Shown here piece by piece: positions 1-64,000 of a stretch of 64,000 nt of DNA (within the stretch, counting starts at the first letter, position 1; every line of letters begins with the position of its first letter). The notes below the pieces were generated by a model, which worked only from the letters and a program-made list of their open reading frames with translations, was not told where the DNA came from and searched no databases. The stretch covers positions 310,001-374,000 of the forward strand of contig JAUIAP010000002.1 in assembly GCA_030425205.1 (NCBI GenBank), written 5' to 3'. Source of the DNA: Anaerolineae bacterium. GTDB lineage: Bacteria; Chloroflexota; Anaerolineae; Promineifilales; Promineifilaceae. Position numbers and translations under genes: made by a program.

Positions 1-1707
1 CTGGCACGTGTGCGCTTGGCGCAGATGACGGGGCAGCAAGCGCAGGGACAGTCCGACGCCGCCCGTATCACCTTCTCCGAAATGGAGAGTCTGCTTGACG
101 CCCAACGTTGGCCGGTGCAGTGGGTCGCCGCACAGCTACAGGCTGCCAGTTTGCAGCCATCCCCGCTCGCCACGTTGCAAGCTGCGCTCGCTGCGGCGCA
201 ACAGCTCGGACTGCCGACGCTCATCTACCGCGCGCATCAGCAGCTTGGACACGTCTATCTACACAATCATGATCCAGCCAACGCGCAACGTCATCTGACG
301 GCCGCCATCGACATCATCGAGAGTCTGCGTGGGACACTGGCCCATGAAATGGCTCTGACTGCCTTCTTGCGCGACAAGACGGGGGCATATGACGATCTGT
401 TGCAACTCTATCTCGCAAGCGGCGCAGAGGAAGAGGCATTTACGCTGGCAGAACGGGCAAAGTCACGCACGTTGGTCGATCTATTGACGGGTGTCATTGT
501 GCCGGCGGCAGCGTCAGATGAGCTGTTAAAATCGGCCGAAACCATCCAACTTGCCGCCCTGCAAGCCGACCTCAACGCAACCTACAATCAGTTTTTTGGC
601 AGCGACGAACCGCTGGCACAACTGCAAGCACGCGCCAAGCGACTTGAACAACAGATCGCGCAAATCAGATTACGAACCGAAGGCTCAAGACGCGTCAAAC
701 ATGCGGAACGTGTCGCTGAACGCTTTTCCAAAACGCCACTCGTTGCCTTTCACATTCTCAATGATGAAATTCTCGCCTTCGTTGCGTGGCAGGGGGAGCG
801 GCGCGTCGTGCGTCAGGTGGGCAGCGTCATCGTTGTCCGCCGCCTCTTGCAGCGTTTAGCGATGCAGTGGGATCGCTTTCGTGCAGGTACGCATTTTGCT
901 GAGCGTCATTTGCAACTGCTCGAACGTTCCGCCCGCAAAATTCTCCAAGACCTTTATGTCAATCTCGTTGCACCGCTCGCCGAACATCTACCCACAGATG
1001 GGGCATTGACAATTGTGCCGCACGGCTTGCTCCACCAAGTTCCCTTCCACGCCCTGCATGATGGGGCGACCTATCTGTTGGAAAAGTTTGAGATTGGCTA
1101 TGCGCCGAGCGTCACGGTGTGGGAACTGTGCCAGCAAAAGCCGCGTGTTGCAGGGCAGAATACGCTGGTAATTGGATCGGCCGATGATCTCATTCCGCTG
1201 GTCGCGGAGGAGGCAGCCCAGATCGGCGCGTTGCTTGATGCAACAGTGTTGCTCAATGAGGGGGCGACGATTCAGCAGGTGCGAGAGCGGATAGATTCGG
1301 CCGAAGTTGTTCATTTCGCCTGTCATGGACTTTTTCGCGCCGACAATCCGCTATTCTCCGCGCTCAAACTGCACGACGGTTGGCTGACTGCGGCCGATGT
1401 TATGCAATGCGATTTTTCCAACGCGCTGGTCACGCTCAGCGCGTGTGAGTCGGGACGCAGCACCGTTCTGCACGGCGATGAGGTGATCGGCTTGCCACGT
1501 GCATTTTTGAGCGCGGGCGCCGCAACGGTTGTCGTCAGTCTCTGGCTTGTTCCTGACGAAACAACGGGCGCGTTAATGCAGCAGTACTATCAGCAACTGC
1601 CGCGCACCAATCGCGCCGCCGCCCTGCGCAATGCCCAACTTGCACTAATGCAAACCCATCCTCACCCCTATTTTTGGGGTGCATTTGTGTCGATTGGACA
1701 GCGTTAA
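1..1707 (+). CDS. CHAT-domain (caspase-like) protein with TPR-like region, 5' end outside window
   Basis: The reading frame is open to the first base, so the gene begins upstream of the window; 568 codons are visible. The first ~150 residues are helical and Ala/Leu/Gln-rich, like TPR repeats (inference). The last ~330 residues are a CHAT domain: the motif HFACHG places the catalytic His at visible residue 442 and LSACESG places the catalytic Cys at residue 482, the caspase/separase-fold dyad. The end is typical (WGAFVSIGQR), so the C terminus is intact. CHAT proteases with TPR partners act as signalling or defence proteases (for example the gRAMP-associated TPR-CHAT), but stand-alone TPR-CHAT proteins are common in Chloroflexota and Cyanobacteria and mostly uncharacterised. 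No partner effector gene lies to its right. Confidence 0.85.
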   Translation: MARVRLAQMTGQQAQGQSDAARITFSEMESLLDAQRWPVQWVAAQLQAASLQPSPLATLQAALAAAQQLGLPTLIYRAHQQLGHVYLHNHDPANAQRHLTAAIDIIESLRGTLAHEMALTAFLRDKTGAYDDLLQLYLASGAEEEAFTLAERAKSRTLVDLLTGVIVPAAASDELLKSAETIQLAALQADLNATYNQFFGSDEPLAQLQARAKRLEQQIAQIRLRTEGSRRVKHAERVAERFSKTPLVAFHILNDEILAFVAWQGERRVVRQVGSVIVVRRLLQRLAMQWDRFRAGTHFAERHLQLLERSARKILQDLYVNLVAPLAEHLPTDGALTIVPHGLLHQVPFHALHDGATYLLEKFEIGYAPSVTVWELCQQKPRVAGQNTLVIGSADDLIPLVAEEAAQIGALLDATVLLNEGATIQQVRERIDSAEVVHFACHGLFRADNPLFSALKLHDGWLTAADVMQCDFSNALVTLSACESGRSTVLHGDEVIGLPRAFLSAGAATVVVSLWLVPDETTGALMQQYYQQLPRTNRAAALRNAQLALMQTHPHPYFWGAFVSIGQR

Positions 1708-2076
1708 ATCGGTAGTTCTACCACGAGGCTTCACCAAAATTCTATGGATATAGCCGCAGACCAACACGCGAAAAGTGTTCAAGCGGGTTGTTTGCAGTGC
1801 GTATCAATGCCCTTTGCATACCAATCTTTGTTTTTAACCATAGGTTTTCTATACAGTCCCTCGAAACCTCGTTGTCGTATTAGACTCATGACCGCAATGC
1901 AGAAACATTTCTACACTCAATACCAAAAAAATGTGTGGAATTCGCTCTATTAGTCAAAGATAAGAATATCGTAGTAGGAACCGAAAAAGGTACAGATTGG
2001 ATGTATTTTTTCAGGTATCAAGGTGCATCTATGGTATAGATATGGAACGAACCGTCATCAATCAAAAATAATCCCC
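1708..2076. other. Intergenic region, no gene supported
   Basis: This 369-bp spacer is more AT-rich than its neighbours. It contains a 69-codon open frame at 1744-1953 with no ribosome binding site and no recognisable protein character, which I do not accept as a gene. The promoter of the downstream subtilase gene should lie here; I could not fix hexamers with confidence. No repeat or TCGGCCGA motif was seen. Confidence 0.5.
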
Positions 2077-3348
2077 ATGAAACGATTTTTACTGCTTAGC
2101 CTCTTACTGCTCATTCTTGTCCCAACACTCGATGCAAGTGCAACGGGTCAAACTGATTTTGCCCCTAATCAGCTCGTTATCAAGGTGAAGCCACTGCTTG
2201 GCGATATCAATCTGATCCATGCCCTCTACGGCACAGACAATCACGTGCCACTCTACAATCGAATTGATACGTTCCTCGTGGACGTGCCGGCATTTTTGAA
2301 TATGGAGGTGGACGTCGTGCGCTTGGCCGCGACGATTTCGGCCGATCCAATGGTCGCCTATGCGGAGCCAAACTACACAAATAGTATGCCATATGATGGC
2401 AGCACAGATCGTATCTATGGTTGGGGTGGCAACGATTCGGCACCGATGCGGCAACAACATGTCGCTACTGATATTGCAAACGCACACGCCTATAGTCGTG
2501 GTGATGGCGTGATTGTGGCCGTATTGGACACGGGCGTTGATTTTTACCATCCAGAATTTGACGGTGTTCTGGATGTTATGAGCTATGACTTTGTTGATAA
2601 CGACCTGCTGCCGCAAGACGTGGCAAATGGGCGCGATGATGACGCAGACGGCTTGATTGATGAGGCATTCGGACACGGCACACATGTTGCTGGCGTGATT
2701 CGACAGGTGGCACCAGAATCGCTAATCATGGCATTGCGCGTCTTAGATTCAGACGGGCGTGGTGAAAATTTCGATGTTGCCAACGCGATTAGTTACGCCA
2801 TGTACAATGGTGCATCGGTGATCAACTTGAGTTTGGGCAGTCACCATGACTCAGCACTTTTGCGCGATGTCATCGAAGAGGCAACCTCGTTGGGTGTTGT
2901 TGTCGTTGCGGCAGCGGGTAATTTGAACAGTGATACCCCACAATATCCCGCCGCCTATTCATGTGCGATTGGCGTCGCTGCTGTTGGCGATTCCGATGTG
3001 AAATCGAGCTTCTCCAGCTACGGAGATTGGGTCGATATCGCCGCACCCGGCGAACAAATTTACAGCACCTTCCCCGATGGCAGCTACGCATGGTGGAGCG
3101 GCACGAGCATGGCGACCCCGCTCATCGCAGGGCAGGCCGCGTTGCTACTCGAACTCGATTTCTACATGAGTGTGGCAGAAATCGGTGAGCAGATCGCGTC
3201 TTCGTCAATCGATCTAAATCCACTCAACCCCGAATTTACCAATCAGCTTGGCGCGGGACGAATGGCAATTACAGAGAGCCTCAAACTGTTACAGTCGAGC
3301 GGGGCAACGCCAAAATCGCTGCACAATGGTTGCACCTACGCGGAATAA
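2077..3348 (+). CDS. Secreted subtilisin-like serine protease (peptidase S8)
   Basis: A 423-residue exported protease. Residues 1-23 form a signal peptide (MKRF followed by a run of leucines, cleavage near DASA). Residues ~25-105 look like an inhibitor/propeptide region. The catalytic triad is complete: Asp151 in VLDTGVD, His200 in GHGTHVAG and Ser344 in SGTSMATP; the oxyanion Asn lies in AAAGN. The open frame runs 18 codons further upstream, but the ATG at 2077 immediately precedes the signal peptide and is chosen. An Asp-rich loop (DNDLLPQDV..DDDADG) between Asp and His may bind calcium. A strong intrinsic terminator follows, so the gene is monocistronic. The natural substrate cannot be deduced. 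Confidence 0.93.
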   Translation: MKRFLLLSLLLLILVPTLDASATGQTDFAPNQLVIKVKPLLGDINLIHALYGTDNHVPLYNRIDTFLVDVPAFLNMEVDVVRLAATISADPMVAYAEPNYTNSMPYDGSTDRIYGWGGNDSAPMRQQHVATDIANAHAYSRGDGVIVAVLDTGVDFYHPEFDGVLDVMSYDFVDNDLLPQDVANGRDDDADGLIDEAFGHGTHVAGVIRQVAPESLIMALRVLDSDGRGENFDVANAISYAMYNGASVINLSLGSHHDSALLRDVIEEATSLGVVVVAAAGNLNSDTPQYPAAYSCAIGVAAVGDSDVKSSFSSYGDWVDIAAPGEQIYSTFPDGSYAWWSGTSMATPLIAGQAALLLELDFYMSVAEIGEQIASSSIDLNPLNPEFTNQLGAGRMAITESLKLLQSSGATPKSLHNGCTYAE

Positions 3349-5359: not shown

Positions 5360-8300
5360 CTACGTCGTCGTTTCCAAGTTGCGCCGCAACTTTTCACCCA
5401 ACACTTCGACATGCGGCTTTTTCAAAAGCGTTGCATGTGTCCCCGTCACGTCTTCAAAATTGACTTGCCCCGTTGTCAGCTCACCCCATTTCGCGTGAAT
5501 CCCTTCATCGTAAAGCTGTAGATACTCCTCGCTCCGAAAAATCGTCATTGGGCCATGATACCCGTTTGAAATGACGTATTTTTCATACGCTTCTGCATGG
5601 GCTTGACGCATTTTGCTGATACGTTGCGCCTGTTTGCTACCAAAGCGATAGAGTAACTTACTCTCAAGCTGGATTTGTGTTTGCCACGCCAATGCGTGGA
5701 TCAAGCGACGGTCGCGCAAGTAGTACCACATCCGTTTTGCGCCATAGGTAATCGGATTTTCGCTGGGCGGTTCGTAATTTGGTGCAGGGCTATCGACAAT
5801 GGCCAAAAGCTCAATTTTCTCGCCCATGGCCTCTAGCTGCTTCGCCATTTCATAGGCGACAACTGCTCCCGCGCAATGTCCGCCAAGCAGGTATGGTCCA
5901 TGCGGTTGAATCTGTTTGATTTCGTCGATGTAAGCAGTTGCCATCTCTTCAATCGACGCTTGAATTTCACGCTCGTCGTTCAATCCGCGTGGTTGGATGC
6001 CATAGAAGGGGCGATCGGGGTCAAGATGGTCGCCCAATGCCTCAAAGGCGAGAATGCTTTCCATGTATGCGCCGACGTGGAAGAACGGCGTTTTGTGCCC
6101 TTTCGGCCGAATTGGAACCAACGCATTCCAATCTGGCTCCCACCCCTCATCGCGCAACATCTCTGCCAACTGTGCCACCGTCGGCGCAGAAAAGAGCGTC
6201 GCCAATGGCAACTTTTTGCCAAACTGGTCTTCGATCTGTTGGAACAGGCGCAATGCCATCAATGAGTGTCCCCCCATATCGAAGAAATCATCATGAATGC
6301 CAATCGCTGGTACTTTTAACACCTCAGCAATTAGCTCGGCCAGTTGGCGTTCGAGCGCATCACGTGGCGCACCCGCGTTGGTCTGTTTGCGCCCTCCTAT
6401 GCGTACGATTGGCACGGGTAGCACAGCGCGATTGATTTTGCCATTGGGCGTTGTCGGCAGTTCGGGCAGCATCACGTAGGCAGATGGCACCATATAATTT
6501 GGCACAAAGCGCCGCAGGAAGCCGCGCAGCTCTTCGGCCGATGGCTCGTTGCCACCTTTACGCAGGACGCAATAGGCAACGATTCGTTTATCGAGTTCCT
6601 CATCCTCACGAATCTGCACAACAGCCTGATCGATCGCCTCATGTGCGATCAAGCCCGCCTCAATCTCGCCCAACTCAATCCGCAAGCCGCGTAATTTGAC
6701 TTGGTGATCGATTCGGCCGATAAATTCGATCCCGCCCCACTTATTCCAGCGCACATAGTCACCCGTGCGGTAATAGCTTAGCTTGCTCCCCGCCTTTTGC
6801 GGGAGAGGGGCTTGGGGGGAAGGGTTTTGTACAAATTTTTCTTTTGTTAATTTCGGCCGATTCCAATACCCGCTGCCAACCTGCACCCCGCCAATCCACA
6901 ACTCCCCTTGCACCCCAACTGGCACAGGCACGCCACGCTCGTTCAACACCTGCATCTGCATGTTGCTGATCGGCTTTCCAATCGGTGTCGTAGCCATCCC
7001 CGCACGCTTGTCACGCGCATTCCATGCCAACACCATCACCGTCGTCTCCGATGGCCCATAGATGTTGTCAAGGCGCGTATTGGGCAACATGCGGAAAAAT
7101 TCATCGCGCAAATCTTCAGGAAACGTTTCGCCGCCCACACAGACAACTTTGAGCGTGCTTGCACACTTTTCTAAGGCCCGATTTTGCATCAACATTCGCA
7201 ACTGCGTCGGCACTAAGAAGGTGTTTGTCACCTTTTCCTGCTTCATAAGTTCAGTCAAATAGACGCTGTCTTTTTCACCGCCAGGCTTGGCGGCAACGAC
7301 GCGCCCACCACTGACGAGCGGGGTCAAAATTTCCCACGATGCCGCATCAAATCCAAAGGGTGCCTTGAGCAACATGCCATCTTTTTCGCCCAATCCATAG
7401 TGACGCGGATACCATTGAATAAAGTTCGCCAACGCGCGCTGCGAGAGCATCGCCCCTTTCGGCCGACCCGTTGAACCACTGGTGTAGATAATCAACGCGA
7501 TGTCATCCGCAGTCACCGTCTGCGTCAGCGGCTCCTCAGAACAGCTTTCGATCACGTCCCAATCCCGATCAATAAACAAGATATTGCGGGCATTTTCCTC
7601 TGGCTCCCCGCTCTCTTCGGGGGTGAGAGCTTCTTCTAACGCTTCCTGCGAAATCAATAACTTCGCATCGCTATCCTCAAGAATAAACGCAACGCGCTCC
7701 GCCGGATAGTCGGGTGCAAGCGGCACATAGGTCGCGCCTGCCTTCAAGACCCCTAAAACAGCGATCCCCATGTCGAGCGACCGTTCCAAAAATAACCCCA
7801 CGCGATCCCCGCGACCAACGCCCTGTTCGCGCAAATAGTGGGCCAACATGTTGGCACAGCGATCGAGCGTGCGATATGAAAGTTTGTCCGTTTCAAAGAC
7901 CCATGCCGTCGCATTTGGTGTGCGCCGCGCTTGCTCTGCAATCAGTTCATGCACCAATGCCGTTGGGTCGCTGTCAAATGCGGTGTCATTCCACTTGGCA
8001 ATTTGAGCCTGTTGCCGATTGCTCAACACGTTGAAATCACCCACCGCACGCTCTGGCACGCTGGCGATCTCACGCAGGAGCGTCTCAAAATGTTCGAGCC
8101 ATTGTGCAATCGTCTCTTCATCATACAGATCGCTGTTGTAGTCAAAATCAGCTTTAAGCGTTGTCCCTTCCTCGTATAGGTTTAGGAACATCTCCCAGTT
8201 GATCGCCTGTTTTGGCACTTCGCGGATCTCTGTTTCTAAGCCGACCAACGGCTTTGGCGGCAATTTGCGATCAAGATTAAAGACCGTTTCGACGAGTGGC

Positions 8301-11300
8301 GACCGGGAAGGATCACGTGGGATGTTGAGTTCGCGCACGAGCGTGCCAAACGTGACGGGCTGATGTTCTTGCGCGTCCAAAAAGCTGTTGCGTACATCAC
8401 TCAGCAGCGTATTGAAGGGGGTGTCGCTGGCAAAACGGCTGCGCAACGGCACAATGTTGACACAATGACCAACGAGATTATCCATCCCTGCCAACGCTTG
8501 CCCCGCCAGCGGAATGCCCACCACGATGTCGCTCTGATTGGTTAACCGATGCAGCAGCACATTGTAGGCGGTCAGCAGCAGGATAAACAGGCTCGATTTT
8601 TGGCGTTTCGCCGTTGCACGCACCGCCTCGATCACGTCCGCGTCAAATTCAAAATGAAACGACGTGCCGTTGTACGTCTTCTTGCTCGGACGTGGGCGAT
8701 CTGTCGGCAGGTCGAGAACGGGAGGCTGTTCGGCAAACTGCTCGCGCCAGTAGCTGACCGCCTCTGTTGATTTTTCGGCCGATTCCCATTTTACATAGTC
8801 ACGGTAGCGGTCGGCTGGCTCCCATTCAACCGGAACCCCCTCAACCAACGCATTGTAACTATCACGGATTTCGTCGATTATGATGACGGCCGACCATCCA
8901 TCATAGACGATGTGATGCGCCGTCCAGTGGAAGACGTGTTCCGTTTCGCTTATTTTATATAGCGTGGCGCGGACGAGCGGGCCATGCACCAAATCAAACG
9001 GCGTCCCGAGCGTTTTGGTCATCAGATGATCTAATTCTGCCTCTGGGCTGCCCATGTCAGTTAGGTCAACGAACGGGATGGAGATGTGGGCATGGCCGGT
9101 CTGGCCGTCTGGATCGGCCGATAATCGTTGCCATTCACCCGCTGGCGAAAAACGATGATGCAGTGCCGAATGACGCTGGATAACCGCCTGCGCTGATTGG
9201 CGCAAGAGTGCTGGGTGAAGCGAACCCCGCAGGCGGAGACTAAAAGACTCGTTATAGGGCAGCGATGCTTTCTCGTCCATCTGCGCTGCCAACCAAATTT
9301 CTTGTTGTGCCTCCGTCAGCGGCATTGGCTCCCGCACATCAGGTGGCGGCGCAGGCAAGAATCCCGCTGCCTGTAGCTCGATCACGCTCTGCTTAATCGC
9401 ATTCTTGATAAACGCAATGTCCGCATCTGTATGCTCAATCGAGAAGAAGCAATTTTGATGGAATGTAAAAACGTAGACTCCCTTTTCCAACAGGTGATAG
9501 AACAGCAAATCATAGAACTGAATGTCGCTTGCCACTTCAAACCGGAACCACGAACTGTAGTGGTTGATTTCGATTGGTACGGCCCGTTGCTTGAAAAAGC
9601 CGTTCATCTCGTTTGCAAACGCCGTCATTTTGTCGTTGACGCGCTGCTGGAGTCCCGAACCCTGCTGCTTGATATAGGTCAGAACCGCCTTTGCCGCCGC
9701 CATCGCCATTGGATGACGCACAAACGTCCCTGCAAAGAATGTCAGCGGTGCCTCTGGCACGCTCTCGTCGCCGTATTGCCAGAATCCGCCGTCGATGCCG
9801 TCCATAAACTTCGCCTTGCCCGCCACTGCACCGATTGGAATACCGCCACCGATGATCTTGCCGTAACAAAGCAGGTCGGGCTGTACGCCGTAGATCTCTT
9901 GCATCCCGCGCGGGTGGACACGGAAACCCGTAATCACCTCATCGAAGATAAGCGCGCACTCCGCTTCTGACGTAATTTTTCGTAGTTCTTGGATGAATAA
10001 TTTCGGCCGATTATTTGGATGCCGACTTTGCACCGTCTCAACCAAAACAGCTGCTAGTTCATCTTTATGTTCCCGAATAAAATCGAGCGAGGCTGGGTCG
10101 CCATACTCCAAAATATAGCTGTTCTTGACCGCATCTTTTGTGATGCCGGGTGCGGCTGGCAGCGTCGCCAGTTCACCACGCATCACCTGCGGACGCGCCA
10201 GCACCTCGTCAAACGTGCCGTGATAGTCACCGCTGAAGTAGACGATTTTCTCGCGCCCCGTTGCCGTCCGCGCCATGCGAATCGCCGCCATAATCGCTTC
10301 CGAACCGGTATTGCAAAAGCTCACACGTTCGACGTTCACCAGCTCCTGCAACATCCGCGACACTTCGCCCGCCGTCTTGCTTTGGGGGCCGATCTCGATC
10401 CCCTTATCAAGCTGCTCGCGCACCGCATCCGTCACAAAATCGGGGGAATGTCCCAAAAAGCTGACCCCGAACCCCATTGTGATATCAACATATTTGTTGC
10501 CATCGACATCCCAAACATACGCGCCCTTTGAACGCTCCGTCACAATTTGGTAGACCAGCTCTTTCCACGTTTGGCGGAATGCGGCAATCGTGCGCGGGTC
10601 GGCCTGCACATCTCGATATTGTTGGGCGTGAGTTTTTGATGTCGGCGTTTTTTTCGTCAGCCGCTGGGTCAAATCATCTAAATGCGCCTGCTGGAGCGGT
10701 GTCAAATCCCCATCTTTGCCCTTTTTGACCTCTTTATAGGGTCCAAAACGCTTGTTGCTCACGTTTTGCGTCGCCGTATAGTTTGGTGCTTTCGGCAGCT
10801 TGGATTTTGGCGCTGCAACTTTAGCGGTTGGCTTGCTCACGCTGGCATTTTGTGGGTTTGCAACTTGCACCTCGGGACTCGCAACTTGTGCCTGCTCAGT
10901 GGGAACGGGTTGCTGAAACGCCACAGGCTGTTGCTGCTGCATCATCATCTGCATCAACATCATCTGCTGCTGCATCATCATTTGCAACATCATCTGATTG
11001 TTATTGCCTTGCATTGGCATCTGCATCGGTTGCTGCGGCATCGGCATTTGTGGCATCTGCATCGGCTGATGCGTCATTTGTGGCTGCGGTGGGTGATAGC
11101 CGTTGCTCGACGCGCCATGACCATTCTCTGCCGCTGTCGCCACCATTGGCTGTGGCGCAGCCATTTTCTGTTGACTGCCAACGGCCACCTGTTGAGTGAC
11201 GACAGGTTCATCCGCAAACTGCTCGGCTGGCAACTTCTCTTCCAATAGCGTCGTCAGCGCATTTGGCGTGTCCACATCTTCGAGCAGCCGACGAAATTTG

Positions 11301-14284: not shown

Positions 14285-14328
14285 AATACTGTTAGACGGG
14301 CATCCACCCGTTCCTGTCAAAGAGCTGA

Positions 14329-17300
14329 CTAAAGAGTGCTCACCATTTTGCGCCGCCGTTGCAGGGCAGCCTGTCGTTTGGCGACCCGCTGTTGAACGGG
14401 CTGTGGCTCGTTCATCGGGCTGGAGCGGAATTTATTGGTCTGCTCAACATCTAAAAATTGTGCTAACTCAGAAATTGTGCGATGCTCAAAAATTTTGTGT
14501 ACGCCTAGCTTTGTGTGAAACCGATCGCGCAGTTGGCTGACGGCGCGCACGACCAAAAGTGAATCCCCACCTAGCTCGAAAAAGCTGTCGTGTATGCCAA
14601 TCTCATTGATCAGCAGAACGTTTTGCCAAACGTCGGCAATGGCGCGTTCCGTTTGGGTGCGTGGGGAGACGAGCGGCGTGTCGCTGATGGGGCGACTGTG
14701 GTCGGGCGAAGGCAAAGCGCGGCGGTTGATTTTGCCGTTGTTGGTGAGTGGGAATGCATCCAACATGACAAAGGCAGCGGGAACCATATAGTCGGGCAGT
14801 TTTGTTTTGGCGTGTTTGCGGAGAGCGGTTGGCGTAACTTCCTCGTTGGTAACGAGATAGGCGACGAGTTGCTTTTCGTCATTGGTAATTTTTCGCGCCA
14901 CAACGCACGCTGCCTGCACAGCCGCATGTTGGGCTAGAACTGCTTCGATTTCGCCTAGCTCGATGCGATAGCCGCGCACCTTCACCTGATGGTCAACGCG
15001 CCCGAAACAGGTCAATGTGCCATCAGGATTAAAGCGTGCCAGATCGCCCGTGCGATAAACGGTTCCGCTCGTTTGGATAAATTTTTCGGCCGATAATTTC
15101 GGCCGATTCAAGTAACCCTTGCTCACGCCAGCCCCGCCGATGCACAACTCCCCAATCGTTCCCGCTGGCACGGGATTGTATTGGCGGTCGAGGATGTGGA
15201 CTGTCGTGTTGGCGATGGGGCGGCCGATGGTGATCGGCTCGTTCGGGCAGACTTGCGCGACGGTTGACCAAATCGTGGTTTCGGTTGGGCCATACATGTT
15301 CCACAATTCAGCCCCACGCGCCAACAGCGCATCTGACAACTTGCGCGATAACGGCTCGCCGCCCGACAGAATGCGTAAATCGCGTTTGCCCTGCCAATCC
15401 GCCTCAATCAGCATACGCCACGTTGCAGGGGTCGCCTGTGCGAGCGTGATGTCACGTTGGATCATTAGCTTTGCAATCGCGTGTGGGCTGGTTGTTGTTG
15501 CGTCGTCGGCAATCGTTAGCTCTGCGCCACTGATAAGCGGCAGGAAAATTTCGAGTGCGGCAATGTCAAAGCTGATCGTGGTGAGCGCGAGCGTGCGGTC
15601 AGCGGCTGAAATACCCGGTTCAACGCGCATCGACATCAAAAAGTTTGCCAATGCCCGTTCTGGTAGTTGCACCCCTTTTGGTTTGCCCGTCGAGCCGCTT
15701 GTGTAGATGACGTAGGCGAGGTTGTTAGTCGCAATGAGGTCACTTGGCGGAAGCGCGTGGCCTGTCGTTGTGACATCCTCAATATGCAACACCTTTTGAT
15801 CGGTCAACGGTAGTTTTGCAGCGAGGGCGCGATTAATAACGATGATCGGCGCGGCCGAATCGTTGAGCATGTAGCTGAGACGGTCACGCGGGTAGGTGGG
15901 GTCGAGCGGGACGTATGCGCCGCCCGCCTTGAGAATGCCGAGCATGGCGATGGGTAGTTCGGCCGATCTTGCAACCGCCAGCCCAACCAACACATTTTCT
16001 CGCACACCCATTTCGCGTAGTGAAACTGCGAGTGCATCCGACCGCGCCGCTAGCTGCGCGTAGGTTACTGACTCATCCTGAAAACGAATCGCCACCTTGT
16101 CAGGCGCACGTCGCACCTGCTCTGCAATCATCGCAGCTACAGAGATAAACGCATCATTCCAGTAGTGTGTCGGATTGACCTGATTTTCTGACAGCCAGAC
16201 GCGATCTGGATTTGACAAGTATGGAATCTGCAACGCCGCGTGATTTGCAAACGTCGGAAAGGTGGTAAGCAGTGTGACCAGTTGCGCCAACATGCGCTCG
16301 GCGAGCGGTGTGGGATATTTGCCAAGCTCATGCTCCAGACGCAGCAACAGCCGCTCACCCCCATAGCCCAAAATGGTCAGGGGAAAGTTTGTCTGCCCGC
16401 GATAGCGAAAGCTACGATTGGACATCGCCATGCGCGCGTCGAGTGTCTCATTGTCGTAGACGACGAGGCTATCAAAAAGCGACGTTCCCGCTGGCAGTTC
16501 GCTCAAACTTTGCACACGAGGCAGTGGGGTATGTTCATGCGGCCGACTTGCAACCTGTTGCCGACGCAACGACTGCAAATAGTCAGTCAGCGTCGTGTCA
16601 GCATCGAGTTTCCCACGCATTGGCAGCGTGTTGATGAACAGCCCGACCATCTCTTTCGCATCTTGCGCCCAGTAGCGACAGGCGCGCGTGCTGGCAAAGA
16701 CGACATCGTTTTCACGGCTGTAATGGTGGAGTAGGATGGCCCATGCCGCCTGCAAGAGCGTATGCAGCGTGACGTTGTTTGCGCTGGCGAAATGTTCTAG
16801 TTCGCGTGTTTGAGCCGCTGTTAAATGGGTTTCAACTTCTCCCCATCGGCCGATTTTCTGCCCACCAAATGCCCCAAACGCAATCTCTGTTGGCGCGCTA
16901 AAGCCAGCCAGTTGCGTGCGCCAAAAGTCGTCGCTGTTTGCAAAGTCGCGCATCATGCGCCATGTCAGATAGCTGGAAAATGGGCGTGGCTGGACAAGTT
17001 CCGTCGCCTCATCCGCATAGACCGCAAAGAGGTCGCGCAGGACGATGGGAAACGAACGCCCGTCAAGCAGAATGTGATGAAACGTCCAAAGCACCGCAAA
17101 GTCGTCATCGGCCAATTGGAAGATGGCGAGACGCATCAGCGGAGGGGTCGCAAAGTCGAAGTCGGTCGTGCGATCTTGCTGGCGATAGCTGGCGATAGCT
17201 TTTTCAGGATTGGGATGGTTGCGGAGATCGCAATAGGTTTGGGGCAGTTCGGCCGATTCGACCGCACATTGACGCGGTTCATCGACCCCTTCCCAAATGA

Positions 17301-17478
17301 AGCGTGTGCGTAATATGGGATGGTGGGCAATGATGCGCTGCCATGCCCGTTGAAACATTTCAACGTCGAGCGACTCATGTAGGCGCATTTCGATCTGTTC
17401 GATATCGACGCCCGAGTGCGGGGCAGCTAGGGCATGAAACAACATCCCTTGCTGGAGTGGACTTAGCTTAATTGTCAT
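14329..17478 (-). CDS. Nonribosomal peptide synthetase module (C-A-PCP), predicted glycine-activating
   Basis: A 1,049-residue single module. It opens directly with a condensation domain (KLSPLQQGMLFHAL; active-site HHILLDG at ~132-138), then an adenylation domain ~455-960 (YTSGSTGKPKG, MYGPTETTIW) and a PCP with Ser973 in GGDSL. Aligning the A-domain core by eye to GrsA gives specificity residues D-I-L-Q-L-G-M-I-W, one change from the DILQLGLIW code recorded for glycine. The last ~40 residues are a basic helix (QRVAKRQAALQRRRKM), a plausible docking segment to the downstream PKS/NRPS. It is the first gene of the two-gene operon, so its C domain must take a substrate in trans or act as an acyl-starter; no loading module, PPTase or MbtH gene is nearby. 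Confidence 0.92.
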   Translation of the reverse strand: MTIKLSPLQQGMLFHALAAPHSGVDIEQIEMRLHESLDVEMFQRAWQRIIAHHPILRTRFIWEGVDEPRQCAVESAELPQTYCDLRNHPNPEKAIASYRQQDRTTDFDFATPPLMRLAIFQLADDDFAVLWTFHHILLDGRSFPIVLRDLFAVYADEATELVQPRPFSSYLTWRMMRDFANSDDFWRTQLAGFSAPTEIAFGAFGGQKIGRWGEVETHLTAAQTRELEHFASANNVTLHTLLQAAWAILLHHYSRENDVVFASTRACRYWAQDAKEMVGLFINTLPMRGKLDADTTLTDYLQSLRRQQVASRPHEHTPLPRVQSLSELPAGTSLFDSLVVYDNETLDARMAMSNRSFRYRGQTNFPLTILGYGGERLLLRLEHELGKYPTPLAERMLAQLVTLLTTFPTFANHAALQIPYLSNPDRVWLSENQVNPTHYWNDAFISVAAMIAEQVRRAPDKVAIRFQDESVTYAQLAARSDALAVSLREMGVRENVLVGLAVARSAELPIAMLGILKAGGAYVPLDPTYPRDRLSYMLNDSAAPIIVINRALAAKLPLTDQKVLHIEDVTTTGHALPPSDLIATNNLAYVIYTSGSTGKPKGVQLPERALANFLMSMRVEPGISAADRTLALTTISFDIAALEIFLPLISGAELTIADDATTTSPHAIAKLMIQRDITLAQATPATWRMLIEADWQGKRDLRILSGGEPLSRKLSDALLARGAELWNMYGPTETTIWSTVAQVCPNEPITIGRPIANTTVHILDRQYNPVPAGTIGELCIGGAGVSKGYLNRPKLSAEKFIQTSGTVYRTGDLARFNPDGTLTCFGRVDHQVKVRGYRIELGEIEAVLAQHAAVQAACVVARKITNDEKQLVAYLVTNEEVTPTALRKHAKTKLPDYMVPAAFVMLDAFPLTNNGKINRRALPSPDHSRPISDTPLVSPRTQTERAIADVWQNVLLINEIGIHDSFFELGGDSLLVVRAVSQLRDRFHTKLGVHKIFEHRTISELAQFLDVEQTNKFRSSPMNEPQPVQQRVAKRQAALQRRRKMVSTL

Positions 17479-19849: not shown

Positions 19850-19944
19850 CTTCCCCAAATAAGACATAGGTAACTTTTCGGCCGAATTTACTACGATTTT
19901 GTAACCATGTCGGCTACACTGTGCAGACTATCTGATGAGCGGTC

Positions 19945-27170: not shown

Positions 27171-27425
27171 CAAGGCATTAAAAGGCTGAGTATAGGCGAG
27201 AATCGAAGGTATTTTCGGCCGAAACTCGCATTACACTTACATTCGTTGGATCGGATGCCGCATCGCGCAGACCCTATGGTATCCAACCTGCGGGAATTTC
27301 TCGGTAAGGCGCGACAAATATCTCATCTGTCCGTAAATCGTAAAATGTCGTTTGTGCATCACGCTCCAGCACGCGATAGAGTGCAATCCAATGGCCATCG
27401 CGAAATCATCTTGCGAGAAATGCAC

Positions 27426-32646: not shown

Positions 32647-35055
32647 TTAAGCTCGCACAGGTCGTCCCGGATTTGCTGGTTTATCAGGAATGATCCCAAA
32701 ACTGTCGTTCTCTTTTTGCAACAGTTCCCAGCCAAACGGCTTACCGATTGGTTCTAATAATGCCATCTCCAACACGTCATCGACGTGCGCAACGGGAACG
32801 AGTTTCAAATCGGCGCGCACCTGGTCGGGGAGTTCGGGAATGTCGCGGGCGTTGCCTTTGGGGAAGATCGCGGTTGAGATGCCAGCGCGCAGGGCGGCAA
32901 TCGTCTTTGCCTTGAGACCGCCGATGGGCAACACTTTGCCACGCAGCGTCACCTCGCCCGTCATCGCAATGTCGCGGCGCACGGGCCGATTGGTGAATGC
33001 TGAAATGATTGCCGTTGTGAGGGCGATACCAGCACTAGGCCCATCTTTTGGTTGTGCGCCAGCGGGGACGTGGATATGGATGTTGACGCGGTCGAACAGG
33101 TGAGGGTTGATGTGATATTGGCGAGCGTTGGCGCGGGCATAGGTTAACGCCGTGTGTGCCGACTCCTTCATTACGTCGCCCAATGAACCCGTCAAGGAGA
33201 GTTTGCCACTGCCTTCGCTCAGGCGGACTTCAATTGAAAGCGTGTCACTGCTCGGCCCGACGACTGCCAAACCTGTTACAACGCCCACCTCGCTCTCTTC
33301 CTCCGCAAGCCCATATTGAAAGCGTTCCATCCCCAAATGTTCTTCAACATCGTTGGGAGTGATGACAAATGGATCGGGTTCGCCACGGGCAATCCGCACG
33401 GCGACCTTGCGCACCATTGTGCCGATCTGTCGCTCAAATTGGCGCACGCCCGCTTCATAGGTGTAGTGGCGAATTAGTTTGCGTAGGGCGGCCTCTTCAA
33501 ATTCAATGTCATAATCGGCTACGCCGTGATCGCGCAACTGCTTGGGCAACAGATATTGCTGCGCGATTTGCACCTTTTCATCTTCGATATATCCCGTCAT
33601 CGTGATCGTTTCCATGCGGTCAAGGAGCGGGGCAGGAATCGTGCTGATCTCGTTGGAGGTGGTGATGAAGATGACTTGACTCAGGTCGAAGGGGAGTTCG
33701 AGATAGTGGTCGGTGAACTCGCTGTTTTGCTGTGGGTCGAGGACTTCAAGCAGGGCAGAGCTTGGATCACCACGCCAATCGCTGCCTACTTTGTCGATTT
33801 CATCTAAAACGATAACGGGGTTGCGTGTCTGCACATCGCGCAAGGCGCGCAAGATGCGTCCGGGCAACGCGCCAATATAGGTTCGCCGATGGCCGCGAAT
33901 TTCCGCTTCGTCGCGCACACCGCCTAGACTGATTCGCGCCATTTCGCGCCCCATCGCACGGGCAACCGACTGGGCGATACTCGTCTTGCCGACACCGGGA
34001 GGGCCGTTTAGATTGATGATCGCGCCGCGCATGTTGGAACCAGCCAGCTTGCGAACGGCGACATACTCGACAATGCGATCTTTAACATCGAGCAGGCCAT
34101 AGTGATCTTCATCCAGCACGGTGCGGACGTGATCCACATCGAGATTGTCTTCAGATAGTTTGCTCCATGGGAGTTCGATCAGCCATTCGAGATAGGTGCG
34201 GATGATGGCAGAATCGGCCGATTGTTCCCCCTGCCGCTCCAACCGCTCTGTCTCCTTCAATGCGCGCTTCTGCACCTGTTCTGGCATTTCGGCATCCAAA
34301 ATTTTACGCCGCATTTCATCCAAAACAGTTTCCGAGTCGTCGCCCAGCTCTTTGCGAATCACCTTCATCTGCTCGCGCAACAGATAGTCGCGCTGTGCCT
34401 TCTCCGCGCTGTCACGGGCATCGCTCTGGATTTGTGTGCGAATTTCGGCAATCTCAAGCTCTTGTTCCAAATAGCGCACCACGTGCGTCAGCCGATCTTC
34501 GCCATCTACCTTTTTGAGCAGCTCAATTTCCAAATCGAGCGGCATGTTGAGCAACCCCGCCATGTAGTCAGCCAGTCGGCCCGCCGTCGGTTTGGCGCGC
34601 AGATTGGCAAGCACCTGTCGGTTGACCTCACCCAGCATGTGGGCATACTCTTCGAGCAGCGCAATCGAATGCGCCATCAGCTTTGTCGGCCGTCCATCAC
34701 TCGCCTCGCCCATCTCCACGTAGCGCGTCACTAAATAGGGCAGCTCTTTGACAACGCCCGTTAGACGCACACGCCGCTTCAACTCAACCAACATCTGCAC
34801 CCCTTCTTGGGGCGCACGCATCAGATCGCGCACCGTGGCCAAAATGCCAACTGGCGCGAGGTCTTCCGTTTTTGGATTTTCTATTTCGGGGTCAAATTGA
34901 ACGAGAATCAGAATATCACTGTTGTGGTCGTAGGCGGCTTGTGCGGCTTTGAGCGACCGTTTTCGGCCGATTGAAATCGTCGTCACCCCACCGGGAAAAA
35001 CGGCTCCACCTCTTAATGGTACGGCTGGGACAGTTCGGCTGGCATTCGTATTCAC
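32647..35055 (-). CDS. lon: ATP-dependent protease Lon (LonA)
   Basis: An 802-residue LonA starting at GTG, with GGAG 12 bp upstream. The N domain runs ~10-200 (VPAVPLRGGAVFPGG). The AAA+ module has Walker A NGPPGVGKTS, Walker B VIVLDEIDKVG and the sensor region. The protease domain carries catalytic Ser674 in KDGPSAGIAL and the Lys in GGLKAKTIAAL. It degrades misfolded and regulatory proteins in the cytosol. The length and all motifs are normal. No HAIR/CIRCE element was recognised upstream. Confidence 0.97.
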   Translation of the reverse strand: MNTNASRTVPAVPLRGGAVFPGGVTTISIGRKRSLKAAQAAYDHNSDILILVQFDPEIENPKTEDLAPVGILATVRDLMRAPQEGVQMLVELKRRVRLTGVVKELPYLVTRYVEMGEASDGRPTKLMAHSIALLEEYAHMLGEVNRQVLANLRAKPTAGRLADYMAGLLNMPLDLEIELLKKVDGEDRLTHVVRYLEQELEIAEIRTQIQSDARDSAEKAQRDYLLREQMKVIRKELGDDSETVLDEMRRKILDAEMPEQVQKRALKETERLERQGEQSADSAIIRTYLEWLIELPWSKLSEDNLDVDHVRTVLDEDHYGLLDVKDRIVEYVAVRKLAGSNMRGAIINLNGPPGVGKTSIAQSVARAMGREMARISLGGVRDEAEIRGHRRTYIGALPGRILRALRDVQTRNPVIVLDEIDKVGSDWRGDPSSALLEVLDPQQNSEFTDHYLELPFDLSQVIFITTSNEISTIPAPLLDRMETITMTGYIEDEKVQIAQQYLLPKQLRDHGVADYDIEFEEAALRKLIRHYTYEAGVRQFERQIGTMVRKVAVRIARGEPDPFVITPNDVEEHLGMERFQYGLAEEESEVGVVTGLAVVGPSSDTLSIEVRLSEGSGKLSLTGSLGDVMKESAHTALTYARANARQYHINPHLFDRVNIHIHVPAGAQPKDGPSAGIALTTAIISAFTNRPVRRDIAMTGEVTLRGKVLPIGGLKAKTIAALRAGISTAIFPKGNARDIPELPDQVRADLKLVPVAHVDDVLEMALLEPIGKPFGWELLQKENDSFGIIPDKPANPGRPVRA

Positions 35056-36961: not shown

Positions 36962-37404
36962 GGATACTTCCTCTAAAATGAAACGTAACAATCCCTGCCA
37001 CTATAGAGAGGGCGACTGACGATGCTGCTTACATCACGCCATTTTTATGATAACTGTAACGTAAGGCTCCAAGGCCCCACGAAAATGAGGTGCAACGCCA
37101 AGACACTTTTCGTAAGGTAAAATCGGCCGAAATCTTACAAAAACAGTTTCTTTCGCGCCAAACTTCACACTAGATTTACGTGATGTTCACGCCCAGCCCT
37201 TGACAACGCGAAAATTGCTGCTTGTAATGCGTCTTCGCACTCCCTATAATGCGTCATGAAATATGATTGCAAAAGCGCAATCCCCCGTTAGCACGTTGAG
37301 CGGTGAGCCATGTTTTGATAAACCACGCAAGACATCTCAACAAACTAACATTTATGAAATGGCTTAACCGAAGTGCCGAAATTTATAGTAGTAAGGAGTT
37401 TGTG
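36962..37404. other. Divergent intergenic region with promoter
   Basis: 443 bp between the SGNH lipoprotein and the response regulator genes. It contains a TCGGCCGA motif at 37122 and a promoter at 37223-37251. An in-frame upward extension of the response regulator (to 37303) is ignored because the strong AAGGAG site at 37393 fits ATG 37405. Confidence 0.6.
37223..37251 (+). promoter_or_regulatory. Sigma-70-like promoter for the response regulator gene
   Basis: TTGTAA (37223-37228) and a perfect TATAAT (37246-37251) are separated by 17 bp. The transcript would have a ~145-nt leader before ATG 37405. Confidence 0.65.
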
Positions 37405-42317: not shown

Positions 42318-43616
42318 TTAGACGAGCAACTTCATAGGCGTCTCCAGAATTGCCTTGAGGTGTTGTAGGAACTGGGCAACTTCGGCACCGTCAGTGACGC
42401 GATGATCGGCCGATAGTGTCACACGCATGATGTTGCGAATGACCATCGTCCCGTCACGCACGACGACCTCTTGTTTGGCGGAACCAACGGCCAAGATCGC
42501 TGCTTCTGGTGGGTTGATGATTGCCGTGAACTCATACACATCAAACGCGCCGAGATTGCTGACGGAGAAGGTACTACCCTGAATATCTTGCGCCTGCACC
42601 TTGCCGACACGGGCGCGACTGATGCGGTCTGCATTCTCACGCGCAACTTGCCCAATGCTCGATTTGTCGGTGTTGTGCTGCACGATGGTCAGCAATCCGC
42701 CCTCGACAGCCACTGCCGTCCCGACGTTGATCTGCTTGTTGTGGAGCAATTTGTCGCCACCCCAACTCGCGTTGATATTGGGATAACTGCGTAGGGCAAC
42801 GCCGCACGCCTTGACGATCAAATCGTTGACACTCGCCTTTTCACCATCTGGCATTGAAGCGTTGATCTGTTTCCGCAACGCCAGTGCGTCCGTCATGTCG
42901 ATGGCTGTGGTGACTTGGAAGTGTGGAACGGTCTGCTTGCTCTCTGTCATGCGGCGCGCAATCGCCTTGCGCAGACGGGTGAGCTCGACCACTTCCTGAT
43001 CGTCTGTTGCCTCGACAGGTGCGGCTGCTGCGGGTCGCGCAGCTGGTGCAGCTGGTGTAGCAGTTTCAGCTGTTGCCTGCTTCGCACCACCTGAGGCAAC
43101 GAACTTTTCGACGTCGGCCTTGACAATTCGGCCGCCGGGTCCTGTGCCGTTGATCTGCTTGAGATCGGCCGATTTATCTTTCGCAATCCGACGTGCAACA
43201 GGGGTGGCCTTGACCCCATCAGGGAACTCTTCGCCAACGGCTTCTCCGCTAGCAGGTTCTGGAGCTGCGTATTCGGCCGATTCTTCCGTTGTCTCTTCAG
43301 CAGGGGCCTCTTCTTCCGCCGGTTTGCTCGGCTTCGGCTTGCCTGCGCTGTCTGGCATAAGGTCGGAGAAGTCTTCCCCTTCCGCACCGATCACGCCCAA
43401 ATCTGCGCCGACGGGAATAATATCCCCTTCTTCGGTGAAGCGTGCTAACAGAACGCCTTCTGACCGTGCCTGTAACTCTTGCGTCACCTTGTCCGACTCA
43501 ATTTCGGCCAACACGTCGCCAATTGCAACCGCGTCGCCGACCTCTTTAAGCCAGACCCCCATCGTTCCTTCTTCCATATCGAAGCCAAGTGTTGGCATTT
43601 TTACCAATTCAGCCAT
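42318..43616 (-). CDS. pdhC: Pyruvate dehydrogenase E2, dihydrolipoamide acetyltransferase
   Basis: A 432-residue E2. One lipoyl domain ~1-80 (lipoyl Lys in IESDKVTQ), an acidic Glu/Ala/Pro linker, the peripheral-subunit-binding domain ~135-175 (KATPVARRIAKD..GTGPGGRIVKADV), an Ala/Pro linker and the catalytic domain with the active-site HRVTDGAEV motif near the end. It transfers the acetyl group to CoA in the pyruvate (or other 2-oxoacid) dehydrogenase complex. Its ATG overlaps the pdhB stop by one base (TAATG). No E3 (lpd) gene follows. Whether the substrate is pyruvate or a branched-chain oxoacid is not fixed by sequence alone. Confidence 0.92.
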   Translation of the reverse strand: MAELVKMPTLGFDMEEGTMGVWLKEVGDAVAIGDVLAEIESDKVTQELQARSEGVLLARFTEEGDIIPVGADLGVIGAEGEDFSDLMPDSAGKPKPSKPAEEEAPAEETTEESAEYAAPEPASGEAVGEEFPDGVKATPVARRIAKDKSADLKQINGTGPGGRIVKADVEKFVASGGAKQATAETATPAAPAARPAAAAPVEATDDQEVVELTRLRKAIARRMTESKQTVPHFQVTTAIDMTDALALRKQINASMPDGEKASVNDLIVKACGVALRSYPNINASWGGDKLLHNKQINVGTAVAVEGGLLTIVQHNTDKSSIGQVARENADRISRARVGKVQAQDIQGSTFSVSNLGAFDVYEFTAIINPPEAAILAVGSAKQEVVVRDGTMVIRNIMRVTLSADHRVTDGAEVAQFLQHLKAILETPMKLLV

Positions 43617-61843: not shown

Positions 61844-61849
61844 TTTCAT

Positions 61850-63509: not shown

Positions 63510-63618
63510 CTTGCGGCACAGACGTAAGTGATATGCGAAGACAGTAACGTTTCGATCTGTCTTCGCTTATGACAACTTTTTAAGCGACAGACAGAATTCA
63601 TGGTGCTAAACTTCCCGC

Positions 63619-64000
63619 ATGAAGCCAAAGTTACGCCCTGTTTCATTTCAAGCGGTTCACTGGCAAAATCGGCCGATGTGGATCATCGACGACCCCCTAC
63701 AACTTAGCCAACAACAGATGATATTGCCCTATGCGCTGGCCAAGATGGTGAGCGAGATGGATGGCACAAAAACGCTCGATGAGCTGCATCGGTTATTATC
63801 GGCCGAAGCAGACTCGCCGACACCGTTCACCACAGTCACCGACGCACTTGCCCAACTCGACGAAAACTTTCTACTCGAAAATGAATTCTCGCGGGCAAAG
63901 GTGGCTGGGATAAAACGTGCATGGCGCGAACAGGAATTTCGTCCCCCCATTTTTGCGGGACACAGCTATCCCGAAGACCCCGCCAAGCTCGACCGCTTTC
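63619..64000 (+). CDS. amrB: AmmeMemoRadiSam system protein B (MEMO1 family) with N-terminal PqqD-like domain, 3' end outside window
   Basis: 127 codons are visible from ATG 63619. The first ~105 residues (starting MKPKLRPVSF; MWIIDDPLQLSQQQMILP; LDEGKTLDELHRLLS-like segment; ALAQLDENFLLE) resemble the PqqD-like N-terminal extension of MEMO1 homologues in Chloroflexota. The frame then reads FRPPIFAGHSYPEDPAKLDRF, the typical beginning of the MEMO1 domain (GxxYPxDPxxL). AmrB works with AMMECR1 and a radical-SAM protein (AmrA, AmrS); reaction unknown. Rest of gene lies beyond the window. Confidence 0.75.
   Translation, partial: MKPKLRPVSFQAVHWQNRPMWIIDDPLQLSQQQMILPYALAKMVSEMDGTKTLDELHRLLSAEADSPTPFTTVTDALAQLDENFLLENEFSRAKVAGIKRAWREQEFRPPIFAGHSYPEDPAKLDRF

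What the first reader, a model, noticed from the sequence alone, without database searches (positions are those of the whole stretch)
532..63805. A highly iterated palindrome, TCGGCCGA, saturates the window (HIP1-like)
By manual count the 8-mer TCGGCCGA occurs about 84 times in 64 kb (for example 532, 1176, 2337, 3657, 4968, 15085 and 15100, 30632, 31403, 31639, 63797); about one copy is expected by chance. It is nearly always flanked by A or T (WTCGGCCGAW). It occurs in all reading frames, giving recurrent tripeptides SAD/SAE, IGR/FGR and RPI/RPK, and in spacers (19874, 27213, 37122). Cyanobacteria show the same phenomenon with HIP1 (GCGATCGC), linked there to a methyltransferase and mismatch repair; I know of no such report for this sequence in a Chloroflexota-like genome.
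Basis: partly seen in the sequence, partly recalled or inferred. Interest (0 to 1): 0.82.

Follow-up and report, generated by a model that had tools for sequence, protein, structure and literature searches.

The report
Palindrome dialects saturate a Chloroflexota family
The eight-letter palindrome TCGGCCGA occurs about once every 830 bases across this bacterial genome, and related genera carry the same six-letter core CGGCCG with different end letters; the copies are likely kept by a still unidentified protein that would favour complete copies when DNA is repaired, and the family would let the long-open question of why such palindromes exist be tested.

Summary
Confirmed: 84 copies of TCGGCCGA in 64 kb (1.2-2.8 expected), 81 with A/T on both sides; 9,414 in the 7.79-Mb genome against 27 of the reversed octamer. 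It is a highly iterated palindrome of the HIP kind outside cyanobacteria, and one dialect of a family-wide system: of 37 sampled family genomes, 20 iterate ACGGCCGT, 2 TCGGCCGA, 1 GCGGCCGC, 5 CGGCCG without flank rule; 5 are weak, 4 lack it. Fourteen sampled genomes of other orders show no enrichment. The force is strong: one-offs that a silent change would complete are depleted about 6- to 14-fold, complete sites exceed codon shuffling 6- to 17-fold. In this genome 354 of 395 SAD/SAE tripeptides are written TCGGCCGA, and these tripeptides are 2.6- to 3.2-fold in excess. HIP1 on two cyanobacterial plasmid stretches gives the same signature. The methyltransferase link is not supported: no cytosine methyltransferase family tested, nor DndC, Vsr or NotI, tracks the motif. 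The mechanism is inferred: site-directed biased repair is favoured; selection is not excluded.

The parts
532..63806 (.). The set of 84 TCGGCCGA sites. Start positions: 532,1177,1297,2338,3657,4966,6103,6534,6713,6853,7459,8775,9114,10003,11391,11976,12803,13590,15086,15099,15959,16846,17249,18063,18348,19462,19878,21318,22174,22625,23239,23876,25796,27215,28658,29720,29858,30203,30634,30859,31405,31639,31961,34214,34963,35520,36021,36551,36935,37123,39729,40329,41662,41780,42406,43165,43273,44917,45977,46041,46803,48421,48939,49326,50583,50868,51234,52262,52940,53253,54622,56527,57034,57331,57691,58748,59480,59570,59848,61533,62357,63258,63669,63799
   Evidence: exact count, positions, flanks, Markov expectations
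532..539 (.). first TCGGCCGA site, inside an ORF (10-1707 +, CHAT domain)
15086..15106 (.). closest pair of sites, 15086 and 15099 (13 bases apart), inside an NRPS ORF (14329-17478 -)
19878..19885 (.). intergenic site
27215..27222 (.). intergenic site
37123..37130 (.). intergenic site
34214..34221 (.). site inside the Lon protease ORF (32647-35055 -)
43165..43172 (.). site inside the 2-oxoacid dehydrogenase acyltransferase (E2) ORF 42318-43616 (-); this operon was one of the regions compared with G001 and G008
63799..63806 (.). last TCGGCCGA site of the window

Best explanation
TCGGCCGA is a highly iterated palindrome, the local dialect of a CGGCCG core iterated across a Chloroflexota family, and it is likely maintained by an unidentified protein that reads the CGGCCG dyad and would bias mismatch or heteroduplex repair toward the complete site. 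Shown: the counts, the genus-level flank dialects, the shortage of one-off sequences that a silent change would complete, the excess of the tripeptides that the site encodes, the evenness of the effect over genes in G001, and the lack of sites on two stretches that hold restriction-modification genes. Inferred: that the cause is a biased-conversion process acting on DNA everywhere rather than usefulness of each single site; that one protein lineage reads the core in all these genera; and that changes in its contacts with the outer bases produce the dialects.
For: (1) Strength and sharpness: ln-odds of complete site against synonymous one-off, relative to codon shuffling, are 4.5 in G000, 5.2 in G008, 3.6 in G001 (hexamer), 4.3 in the ACGGCCGT pool and 4.6 in G015, against -0.4 in the motif-free pool and -2.4 to 0.3 for four control palindromes in G000. 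(2) Independence of gene and frame: in G001, 71%, 78% and 71% of positions able to encode CGGCCG silently do so in the three frames (1,529 of 2,030), and the per-gene spread over 138 genes with 6 or more such positions is near binomial (sd 0.145 against about 0.133). (3) Not confined to genes: in G000 77 CGGCCG sites lie in 71 kb outside the called ORFs, in G001 168 in 54 kb. (4) It goes with altered protein sequence: in G000 SAE 230 seen/73 expected, SAD 165/64, RPK 30/9, while AAE is 60/101; in G008 SAE 124/31. (5) Turnover: of 22 G000 sites aligned to G008 only 8 are shared, but 6 of 7 where the tripeptide is identical. (6) The longest site-free stretch among the G000 pieces examined (7.57 kb) and one of the two longest in G008 (4.83 kb) hold methyltransferase genes of restriction-modification type, so some DNA that looks acquired is unpopulated. 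(7) Same core, different outer letters in related genera.
Against: No candidate gene was found. In G000 closely spaced pairs are rarer than random (gaps under 100 bp: 37 seen, 73 expected; 31 against 56 on contig C31 plus the window). A process that treats every site independently does not predict this; selection with diminishing returns would. G001 shows no such deficit (729 against 698). A uniform selection of about the same scaled strength would give the same one-off pattern, so bias and selection cannot be told apart from one genome per species. The other of G008's two longest gaps lies in an ordinary large ORF, so site-free stretches are not only acquired DNA, and the 7.57-kb stretch of G000 also covers a regulator, a hydrolase and part of a metabolic gene. 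Five of 37 family genomes show only weak bias (hexamer ln-odds 0.5-1.0).
Confidence: 0.45

Rival explanations
1. Methylation-directed route (Elhai 2015 for HIP1): a DNA methyltransferase modifies cytosine in CGGCCG and mismatch repair uses the modified strand, so that new or intact sites are fixed preferentially.
For: [quoted passage not shown] the same paper lists some HIP1 genomes without a CGATCG enzyme, passage). The core contains G-C as that model needs. G000 has 4 PF00145 (one with an in-frame stop), 5 PF01555 and 2 PF02086 matches. PF00145 is in 19 of 35 motif-rich but 0 of 4 motif-free genomes.
Against: No family of cytosine methyltransferase tracks the motif: PF00145 in 19 of 35 motif-rich genomes, PF01555 in 33 of 35, PF02086 in 30 of 35 and 4 of 4 motif-free ones. 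The m5C enzymes of G000 (4), G001 (3) and G008 (1) are not orthologous: the best cross-genome pair among them in the 60 pairs listed has 43.6% identity. G006 (94% complete, 25,568 CGGCCG) has none of the three families. Strength of hexamer bias does not differ with PF00145 (medians 1.45, n 19, and 1.16, n 13; p = 0.21). G000's best-scoring PF01555 gene lies on a site-free stretch. Vsr is in 8 of 56 genomes and in none of G000, G001, G008. Three Lake Biwa Chloroflexi drafts had the methylated motifs GANTC, TTAA and GCWGC only (PMC6329791, passages), but they are not known to belong to this family.
Confidence: 0.22
2. Direct selection: each site is useful, for example as a binding site of a nucleoid, segregation or self-recognition protein, and silent and tolerable amino-acid positions have been filled.
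For: Sites are more evenly spaced than random in G000. The scaled effect per site (ln-odds 4-5) is within the range of selection on codon usage in large populations (recalled). Dialects fit a co-evolving binding protein.
Against: G001 fills about 75% of silent opportunities at one site per 190 bp without any spacing effect, and nearly uniformly over genes. A function served by one site per kilobase would not need this.
Confidence: 0.22
3. DNA-uptake drive: the palindrome is a DNA uptake sequence with genus dialects, accumulating because DNA that carries it is taken up and recombined preferentially.
For: Neisseriaceae show lineage dialects around a constant core and thousands of copies (PMC3630211, abstract and passages). 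ComEC is present in 50 of 56 genomes of the order.
Against: In Haemophilus and Neisseria one-mismatch forms are themselves overrepresented (PMC1939737, passages). Here silent one-offs are about 6- to 14-fold depleted and core one-offs are near or below background. The motif is a palindrome. ComEC is equally present in the 4 motif-free genomes.
Confidence: 0.1
4. Composition or an assembly artefact.
For: None found.
Against: Markov expectations, reversed-motif control, control palindromes, independent genomes and codon shuffling.
Confidence: 0.01

Closest known systems
HIP1 (GCGATCGC) and alternate HIPs of cyanobacteria (Elhai 2015, PMC4390886)
   Same: Dominant palindromic octamer at about one per kilobase; extensions keep the dyad; deviations favour outer positions; present in all frames and spacers; same synonymous-one-off signature measured here on 50-kb stretches of Synechocystis pSYSM and Trichormus variabilis plasmid A.
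   Different: Other phylum, other core (CGGCCG instead of CGATCG). Several dialects within one family, with two outer-base rules inside one genus. None of the methyltransferase families tested is shared by all carriers.
DNA uptake sequence dialects of Neisseriaceae (PMC3630211)
   Same: Thousands of copies, constant core with lineage-specific outer bases, effect on encoded amino acids.
   Different: Palindromic; silent one-mismatch forms depleted, not in excess; no uptake data; competence gene comEC does not track it.
Dcm/Vsr-type methylation-coupled short-patch repair
   Same: Known (recalled) example of a repair enzyme that enriches its own target sequence.
   Different: Vsr in 8 of 56 genomes and not in G000, G001 or G008; in the core, transversion one-offs are reduced at least as much as transitions, whereas Vsr acts on T:G mismatches (recalled).
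EagI/NotI restriction-modification (CGGCCG and GCGGCCGC; specificities recalled)
   Same: Same core and one of the same octamers.
   Different: NotI-like endonuclease in only 4 of 56 genomes; restriction would be expected to deplete, not enrich, sites.

Membership tests
HIP (highly iterated palindrome) | One palindromic octamer dominates, 300-2700 per Mb and 55-228 times base-composition expectation (Elhai Table 2 passage) | tested here: met
   1,209 per Mb genome-wide; 600 in 460 kb against 8.5 from base composition, about 71-fold
HIP (highly iterated palindrome) | Extensions beyond the octamer preserve the dyad | tested here: met
   in G000 the first outer base is A or T in 97% and the second in 73% of half-sites, both strands
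HIP (highly iterated palindrome) | Deviations concentrate at first and last positions | tested here: met
   In G000 GCGGCCGA 97 and ACGGCCGA 60 against 25 and 17 expected (both strands), CCGGCCGA 13 against 15; inner one-offs 122 in all against 162. In G008 the outer one-offs are not in excess (51 against 61)
HIP (highly iterated palindrome) | Genome has a methyltransferase able to modify the motif | tested here: inconclusive
   Methyltransferase genes exist but specificities are unknown and no tested family is common to all carriers
HIP (highly iterated palindrome) | Same behaviour at silent positions as HIP1 | tested here: met
   ln-odds 3.3 and 3.2 for HIP1 on two plasmid stretches (26 and 23 coding sites), 3.6-5.2 here
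HIP1 proper | Sequence GCGATCGC in a cyanobacterium | tested here: not met
   Core is CGGCCG; nearest named relatives are Chloroflexi MAGs
DNA uptake sequence | One-mismatch forms overrepresented (passages of PMC1939737) | tested here: not met
   Silent one-offs 29 against 166 (G000), 8 against 93 (G008), 144 against 850 (G001, hexamer). All octamer one-offs: 292 against 219 in G000, the excess at the outer position; 107 against 172 in G008. Non-silent ones are in excess in G000 and the A pool, not in G008, G001 or G015
DNA uptake sequence | Lineage dialects around a constant core | tested here: met
   ACGGCCGT, TCGGCCGA, GCGGCCGC and flank-free forms
DNA uptake sequence | Sequence-dependent uptake through a receptor such as ComP | not testable with these tools
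   No uptake data; comEC in 50 of 56 genomes; ComP not searched
Phosphorothioation (Dnd) target | DndC present in carriers | tested here: not met
   5 of 56 genomes over the cut-off; not in G001 or G008, and only a sub-threshold match in G000
NotI/EagI restriction-modification | NotI-family endonuclease in carriers | tested here: not met
   4 of 56 genomes
Dcm/Vsr repair | Vsr present in carriers | tested here: not met
   8 of 56 genomes

The most novel reading that the evidence does not exclude
A whole bacterial family carries a self-propagating sequence-conversion system: one protein lineage reads the dyad CGG-CCG, its contacts with the outer bases define genus dialects (A, T, G or none), and repair biased toward the complete site has filled about 1% (G000) to 3% (G001) of the genome with sites and rewritten part of the proteome, without any DNA methylation.
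Probability: 0.3. Interest if true: 0.92.

Novelty: new variant of a known kind. Interest (0 to 1): 0.76.

Why it matters
HIP1 has, as far as I know, no agreed function, and most HIP1 cyanobacteria share the same palindrome. This family gives a natural experiment: 28 of 37 sampled genomes carry the same core at high bias, with four outer-base rules (A, T, G, none), two of them inside one genus, and 4 relatives that lack it. Any proposed reader protein must co-vary with the dialect. It also shows that a short DNA motif can go with reshaped proteins: Ser-Ala-Asp and Ser-Ala-Glu are 2.6- and 3.2-fold in excess in the window genome.

Tried and rejected
Composition: rejected. Simple 'one-offs drained into sites' mass balance: looked right on the first 93 kb of G001. 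It failed for all hexamer one-offs with a model built after masking the sites (ratios 1.07 in G000, 0.97 in G008, 0.85 in G001) and was replaced by the synonymous/non-synonymous split. m5C methyltransferase shared by carriers: rejected. A Dcm-like enzyme is shared by G001, G024 and G061 at 66-71% identity, all without a flank rule, but by my recollection of Dcm it is of the CCWGG type, and G024 shows only weak bias. N4/N6 and D12 methyltransferases: no tracking. Dnd, NotI, Vsr, ComEC: see membership tests. Position conservation in rpoC: 34 genomes aligned, 31 of them without G021, G028 and G033 used for the counts; only moderate (0.43 against 0.30 between genera; 1,459 shared pairs against 1,010 in the null). 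Literature: in the listed rows of 10 searches (lists were capped, e.g. 20 of 167 papers) I saw no paper on an iterated CGGCCG palindrome in Chloroflexota. The library lacks most subscription papers; a 2018 NAR paper on HIP1 selection (recalled) was not in the rows listed.

G000 has 7.7% estimated contamination. Main samples were 460 kb of G000, 325 kb of G001 and 220 kb of G008; the other family genomes had about 4-55 kb each. ORFs were called mechanically. In one search, 3 of 63 rows (masked sequence) were skipped. One search kept 37 of 41 family genomes; G003, G005, G030 and G067 had under 6 kb of ORFs.


Full report
THE OBSERVATION. TCGGCCGA occurs 84 times in the window, where 1.2 (composition) to 2.8 (order-3 Markov) are expected; the next palindromic octamer has 7 copies. 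Both outside neighbours are A or T in 81 of 84 cases. In the whole genome (G000, 7,787,621 bases in 108 contigs; the window is contig 31, 310001-374000) there are 9,414 copies and only 27 of the reversed octamer. In 460 kb sampled, the site has 600 copies (1,304 per Mb). Flank preferences extend to A/T at the first (97%) and second (73%) outer base. The window's genes that I looked at are ordinary: CHAT, subtilase, NRPS, aldehyde ferredoxin oxidoreductase, Lon, a 2-oxoacid dehydrogenase operon, histidine kinases, an ABC transporter (18 ORFs).

A FAMILY-WIDE CORE WITH DIALECTS. Among 58 relatives, TCGGCCGA is abundant in G008 (7,668) and raised in G001 (1,326, reversed control 2). The hexamer core tells more: CGGCCG is present 13,891 times in G000 and 21,019 times in the 4.1-Mb genome of its genus-mate G001. 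In samples of about 4 to 490 kb, CGGCCG exceeds a masked order-2 model about two-fold or more in 35 of the 39 family genomes that were also searched for methyltransferases. The outer letter differs: T in G000 and G008 (80-86%), G in G015 (95-98%), A in a large group (about 54-100%; only 38% in 5 kb of G030), none in G001, G006 and G061. A stricter per-genome measure, the ln-odds of complete site against silent one-off relative to codon shuffling, sorts 37 genomes into ACGGCCGT (20; 3.1-6.1), TCGGCCGA (2; 4.55 and 5.05), GCGGCCGC (1; 4.8), hexamer without flank rule (5: G001, G006, G026, G033, G061; 1.8-3.6), weak (5: G004, G020, G024, G031, G059; 0.5-1.0) and none (4: G010, G012, G021, G028) (some samples are only 6-10 kb, and G010 gives 2.1 for the A form on few counts). 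Fourteen usable genomes of other orders in the same class show no enrichment (0-1.3). In a second family of the same order two usable samples give 1.9 (20 kb) and 5.0 (5 kb), so the limit of the system within the order is open. On an rpoC tree of 34 genomes G000 and G008 are sisters and the A dialect is spread over most of the rest, so A is probably ancestral (inference). G001 could not be placed on that tree because its rpoC is incomplete. The closest named records to one window gene are Chloroflexi bacterium and Ardenticatenaceae bacterium MAGs (72-75% identity). They too carry 48-57 CGGCCG in 16-19 kb.

HOW STRONG THE FORCE IS. In G001, 1,529 of the 2,030 peptide positions that can encode CGGCCG silently do so, 71-78% in each frame, against 236 sites expected from codon shuffling; in G012 the figure is 1 of 140. 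Silent one-offs are depleted: 29 against 166 in G000, 8 against 93 in G008, 144 against 850 in G001, 22 against 192 in the A pool, 2 against 28 in G015. In the motif-free pool they are 249 against 216. Four other palindromes in G000 show nothing of the kind. Non-silent octamer one-offs are in excess in G000 (240 against 138) and in the A pool (219 against 137), as expected where a protein forbids completion, but not in G008 (85 against 82) or G015 (11 against 16), and for the hexamer in G001 they are fewer than expected (1,047 against 1,489). Amino acids are not always respected: in G000 SAE is 230 against 73 expected, SAD 165/64, IGR 78/39, FGR 62/31, RPK 30/9, and AAE 60/101; 354 of 395 SAD/SAE are spelled TCGGCCGA. 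In G001, where the outer bases do not matter, the same tripeptides are at 0.9 to 1.8 times expectation (FGR 44/25, SAD 59/42, SAE 35/28). DNA outside the called ORFs is enriched too, though less than genes (1.08 against 2.0 CGGCCG per kb in G000).

SPACING, TURNOVER, NEW DNA. In G000 gaps below 100 bp are half as frequent as expected (37 against 73). G001 shows no deficit (729 against 698) and G008 a slight one (35 against 46). Among aligned orthologues, 8 of 22 G000 sites recur in G008, but 6 of 7 where the tripeptide is identical. Serines encoded inside sites are conserved in relatives in 21 of 51 cases against 602 of 1,185 other serines (four comparisons pooled; small sample, weak difference). 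In G001 the per-gene saturation is almost binomial; of the genes with 4 or more possible positions one falls below p = 0.001, a 3,957-residue repetitive protein. The longest site-free stretch in the G000 pieces examined, 7.57 kb, holds a methyltransferase gene of restriction-modification type among other genes. One of the two longest in G008 (4.8 kb) holds an apparently split methyltransferase gene; the other (5.0 kb) lies in a large ordinary ORF.

NO SHARED METHYLTRANSFERASE. Elhai's survey of cyanobacteria found a matching methyltransferase in the genomes with highly overrepresented sequences and proposed methylation-directed mismatch repair (PMC4390886; outline, passages, and sections 2.5.3, 2.6 and 3.4 read). 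Here PF00145 is found in 19 of 35 motif-rich and 0 of 4 motif-free family genomes, PF01555 in 33 and 2, and PF02086 in 30 and 4. G006, 94% complete and with 25,568 CGGCCG, has none of the three. The m5C enzymes of G000, G001 and G008 are not orthologues. Hexamer bias does not differ with PF00145 (p = 0.21). DndC (5 of 56 over the cut-off), NotI-type endonuclease (4 of 56) and Vsr (8 of 56) are sporadic, and ComEC is general (50 of 56). This does not exclude an unrecognised modifying enzyme, several unrelated enzymes, or a gene missing from draft genomes.

READING. The thing meets the HIP features that could be decided, save that the matching methyltransferase stays open and that the outer-position excess of one-offs is seen in G000 but not G008. 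HIP1 on two cyanobacterial plasmid stretches gives the same signature with the same script (ln-odds 3.3 and 3.2). The most economical mechanism is a bias attached to the sequence itself and acting all over the chromosome, about equally in genes and frames, strong enough to fill most silent positions and some replacement positions, slow enough that some newly arrived DNA is empty. Biased repair of heteroduplexes by a protein that reads the dyad fits. Direct selection for a binding site fits the even spacing in G000 but not the flank-free saturation in G001. A DNA-uptake drive fits the dialects (as in Neisseriaceae, PMC3630211, passages) but not the shortage of one-offs, which are in excess in true uptake sequences (PMC1939737, passages). 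The step from pattern to protein is inference.

Noticed in passing
G001, G000 and G008 samples (loci L038-L097, window): Other hexamer palindromes are strongly avoided: median observed/expected of 64 palindromes 0.11 in G001, 0.36 in G000, 0.60 in G008.
   Followed up: partly
G000, G001, G008 samples: GGCC outside CGGCCG is depleted (0.51, 0.36, 0.67 of expectation), e.g. TGGCCA 66 against 404 on both strands in G000.
   Followed up: partly
G012 (loci L115, L140): A family member in which CGGCCG is nearly absent (1 in 17 kb against 13.5 expected; 447 in 4 Mb), as if actively avoided.
   Followed up: no
flanks of TCGGCCGA in G000: G-rich 5' flank from -6 to -18, with G at -7 in 51% of half-sites; not seen to this extent in G001. 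May reflect codon frame; unexplained.
   Followed up: no
loci L224-L227 (G030, G029, G015, G016): NotI-like endonuclease genes in four genomes; in G016 an N4/N6 methyltransferase gene lies beside and overlaps it.
   Followed up: partly
L057:110-3402: Restriction-modification-like locus in G000: an ORF of 784 aa followed by a PF01555 methyltransferase, free of TCGGCCGA.
   Followed up: partly
L094 (G001 contig 25): ORF of 3,957 residues made of repeated surface-protein-like units; the only gene of the G001 sample whose site saturation (22 of 55) is below p = 0.001.
   Followed up: no
window 5360-17478 (-): Two adjoining large ORFs (2,986 and 1,049 aa); the second is an NRPS module (condensation, adenylation, carrier). 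The first was not searched.
   Followed up: no
G015 sample (L098, L129, L033): GCGGCCGC dialect extends to pyrimidine at the next outer base (C 68%, T 24%), so the outer rule has at least two bases there as in G000.
   Followed up: no
L016 (G000 contig 44): One of the four m5C methyltransferase genes of G000 has an in-frame stop; described only.
   Followed up: no
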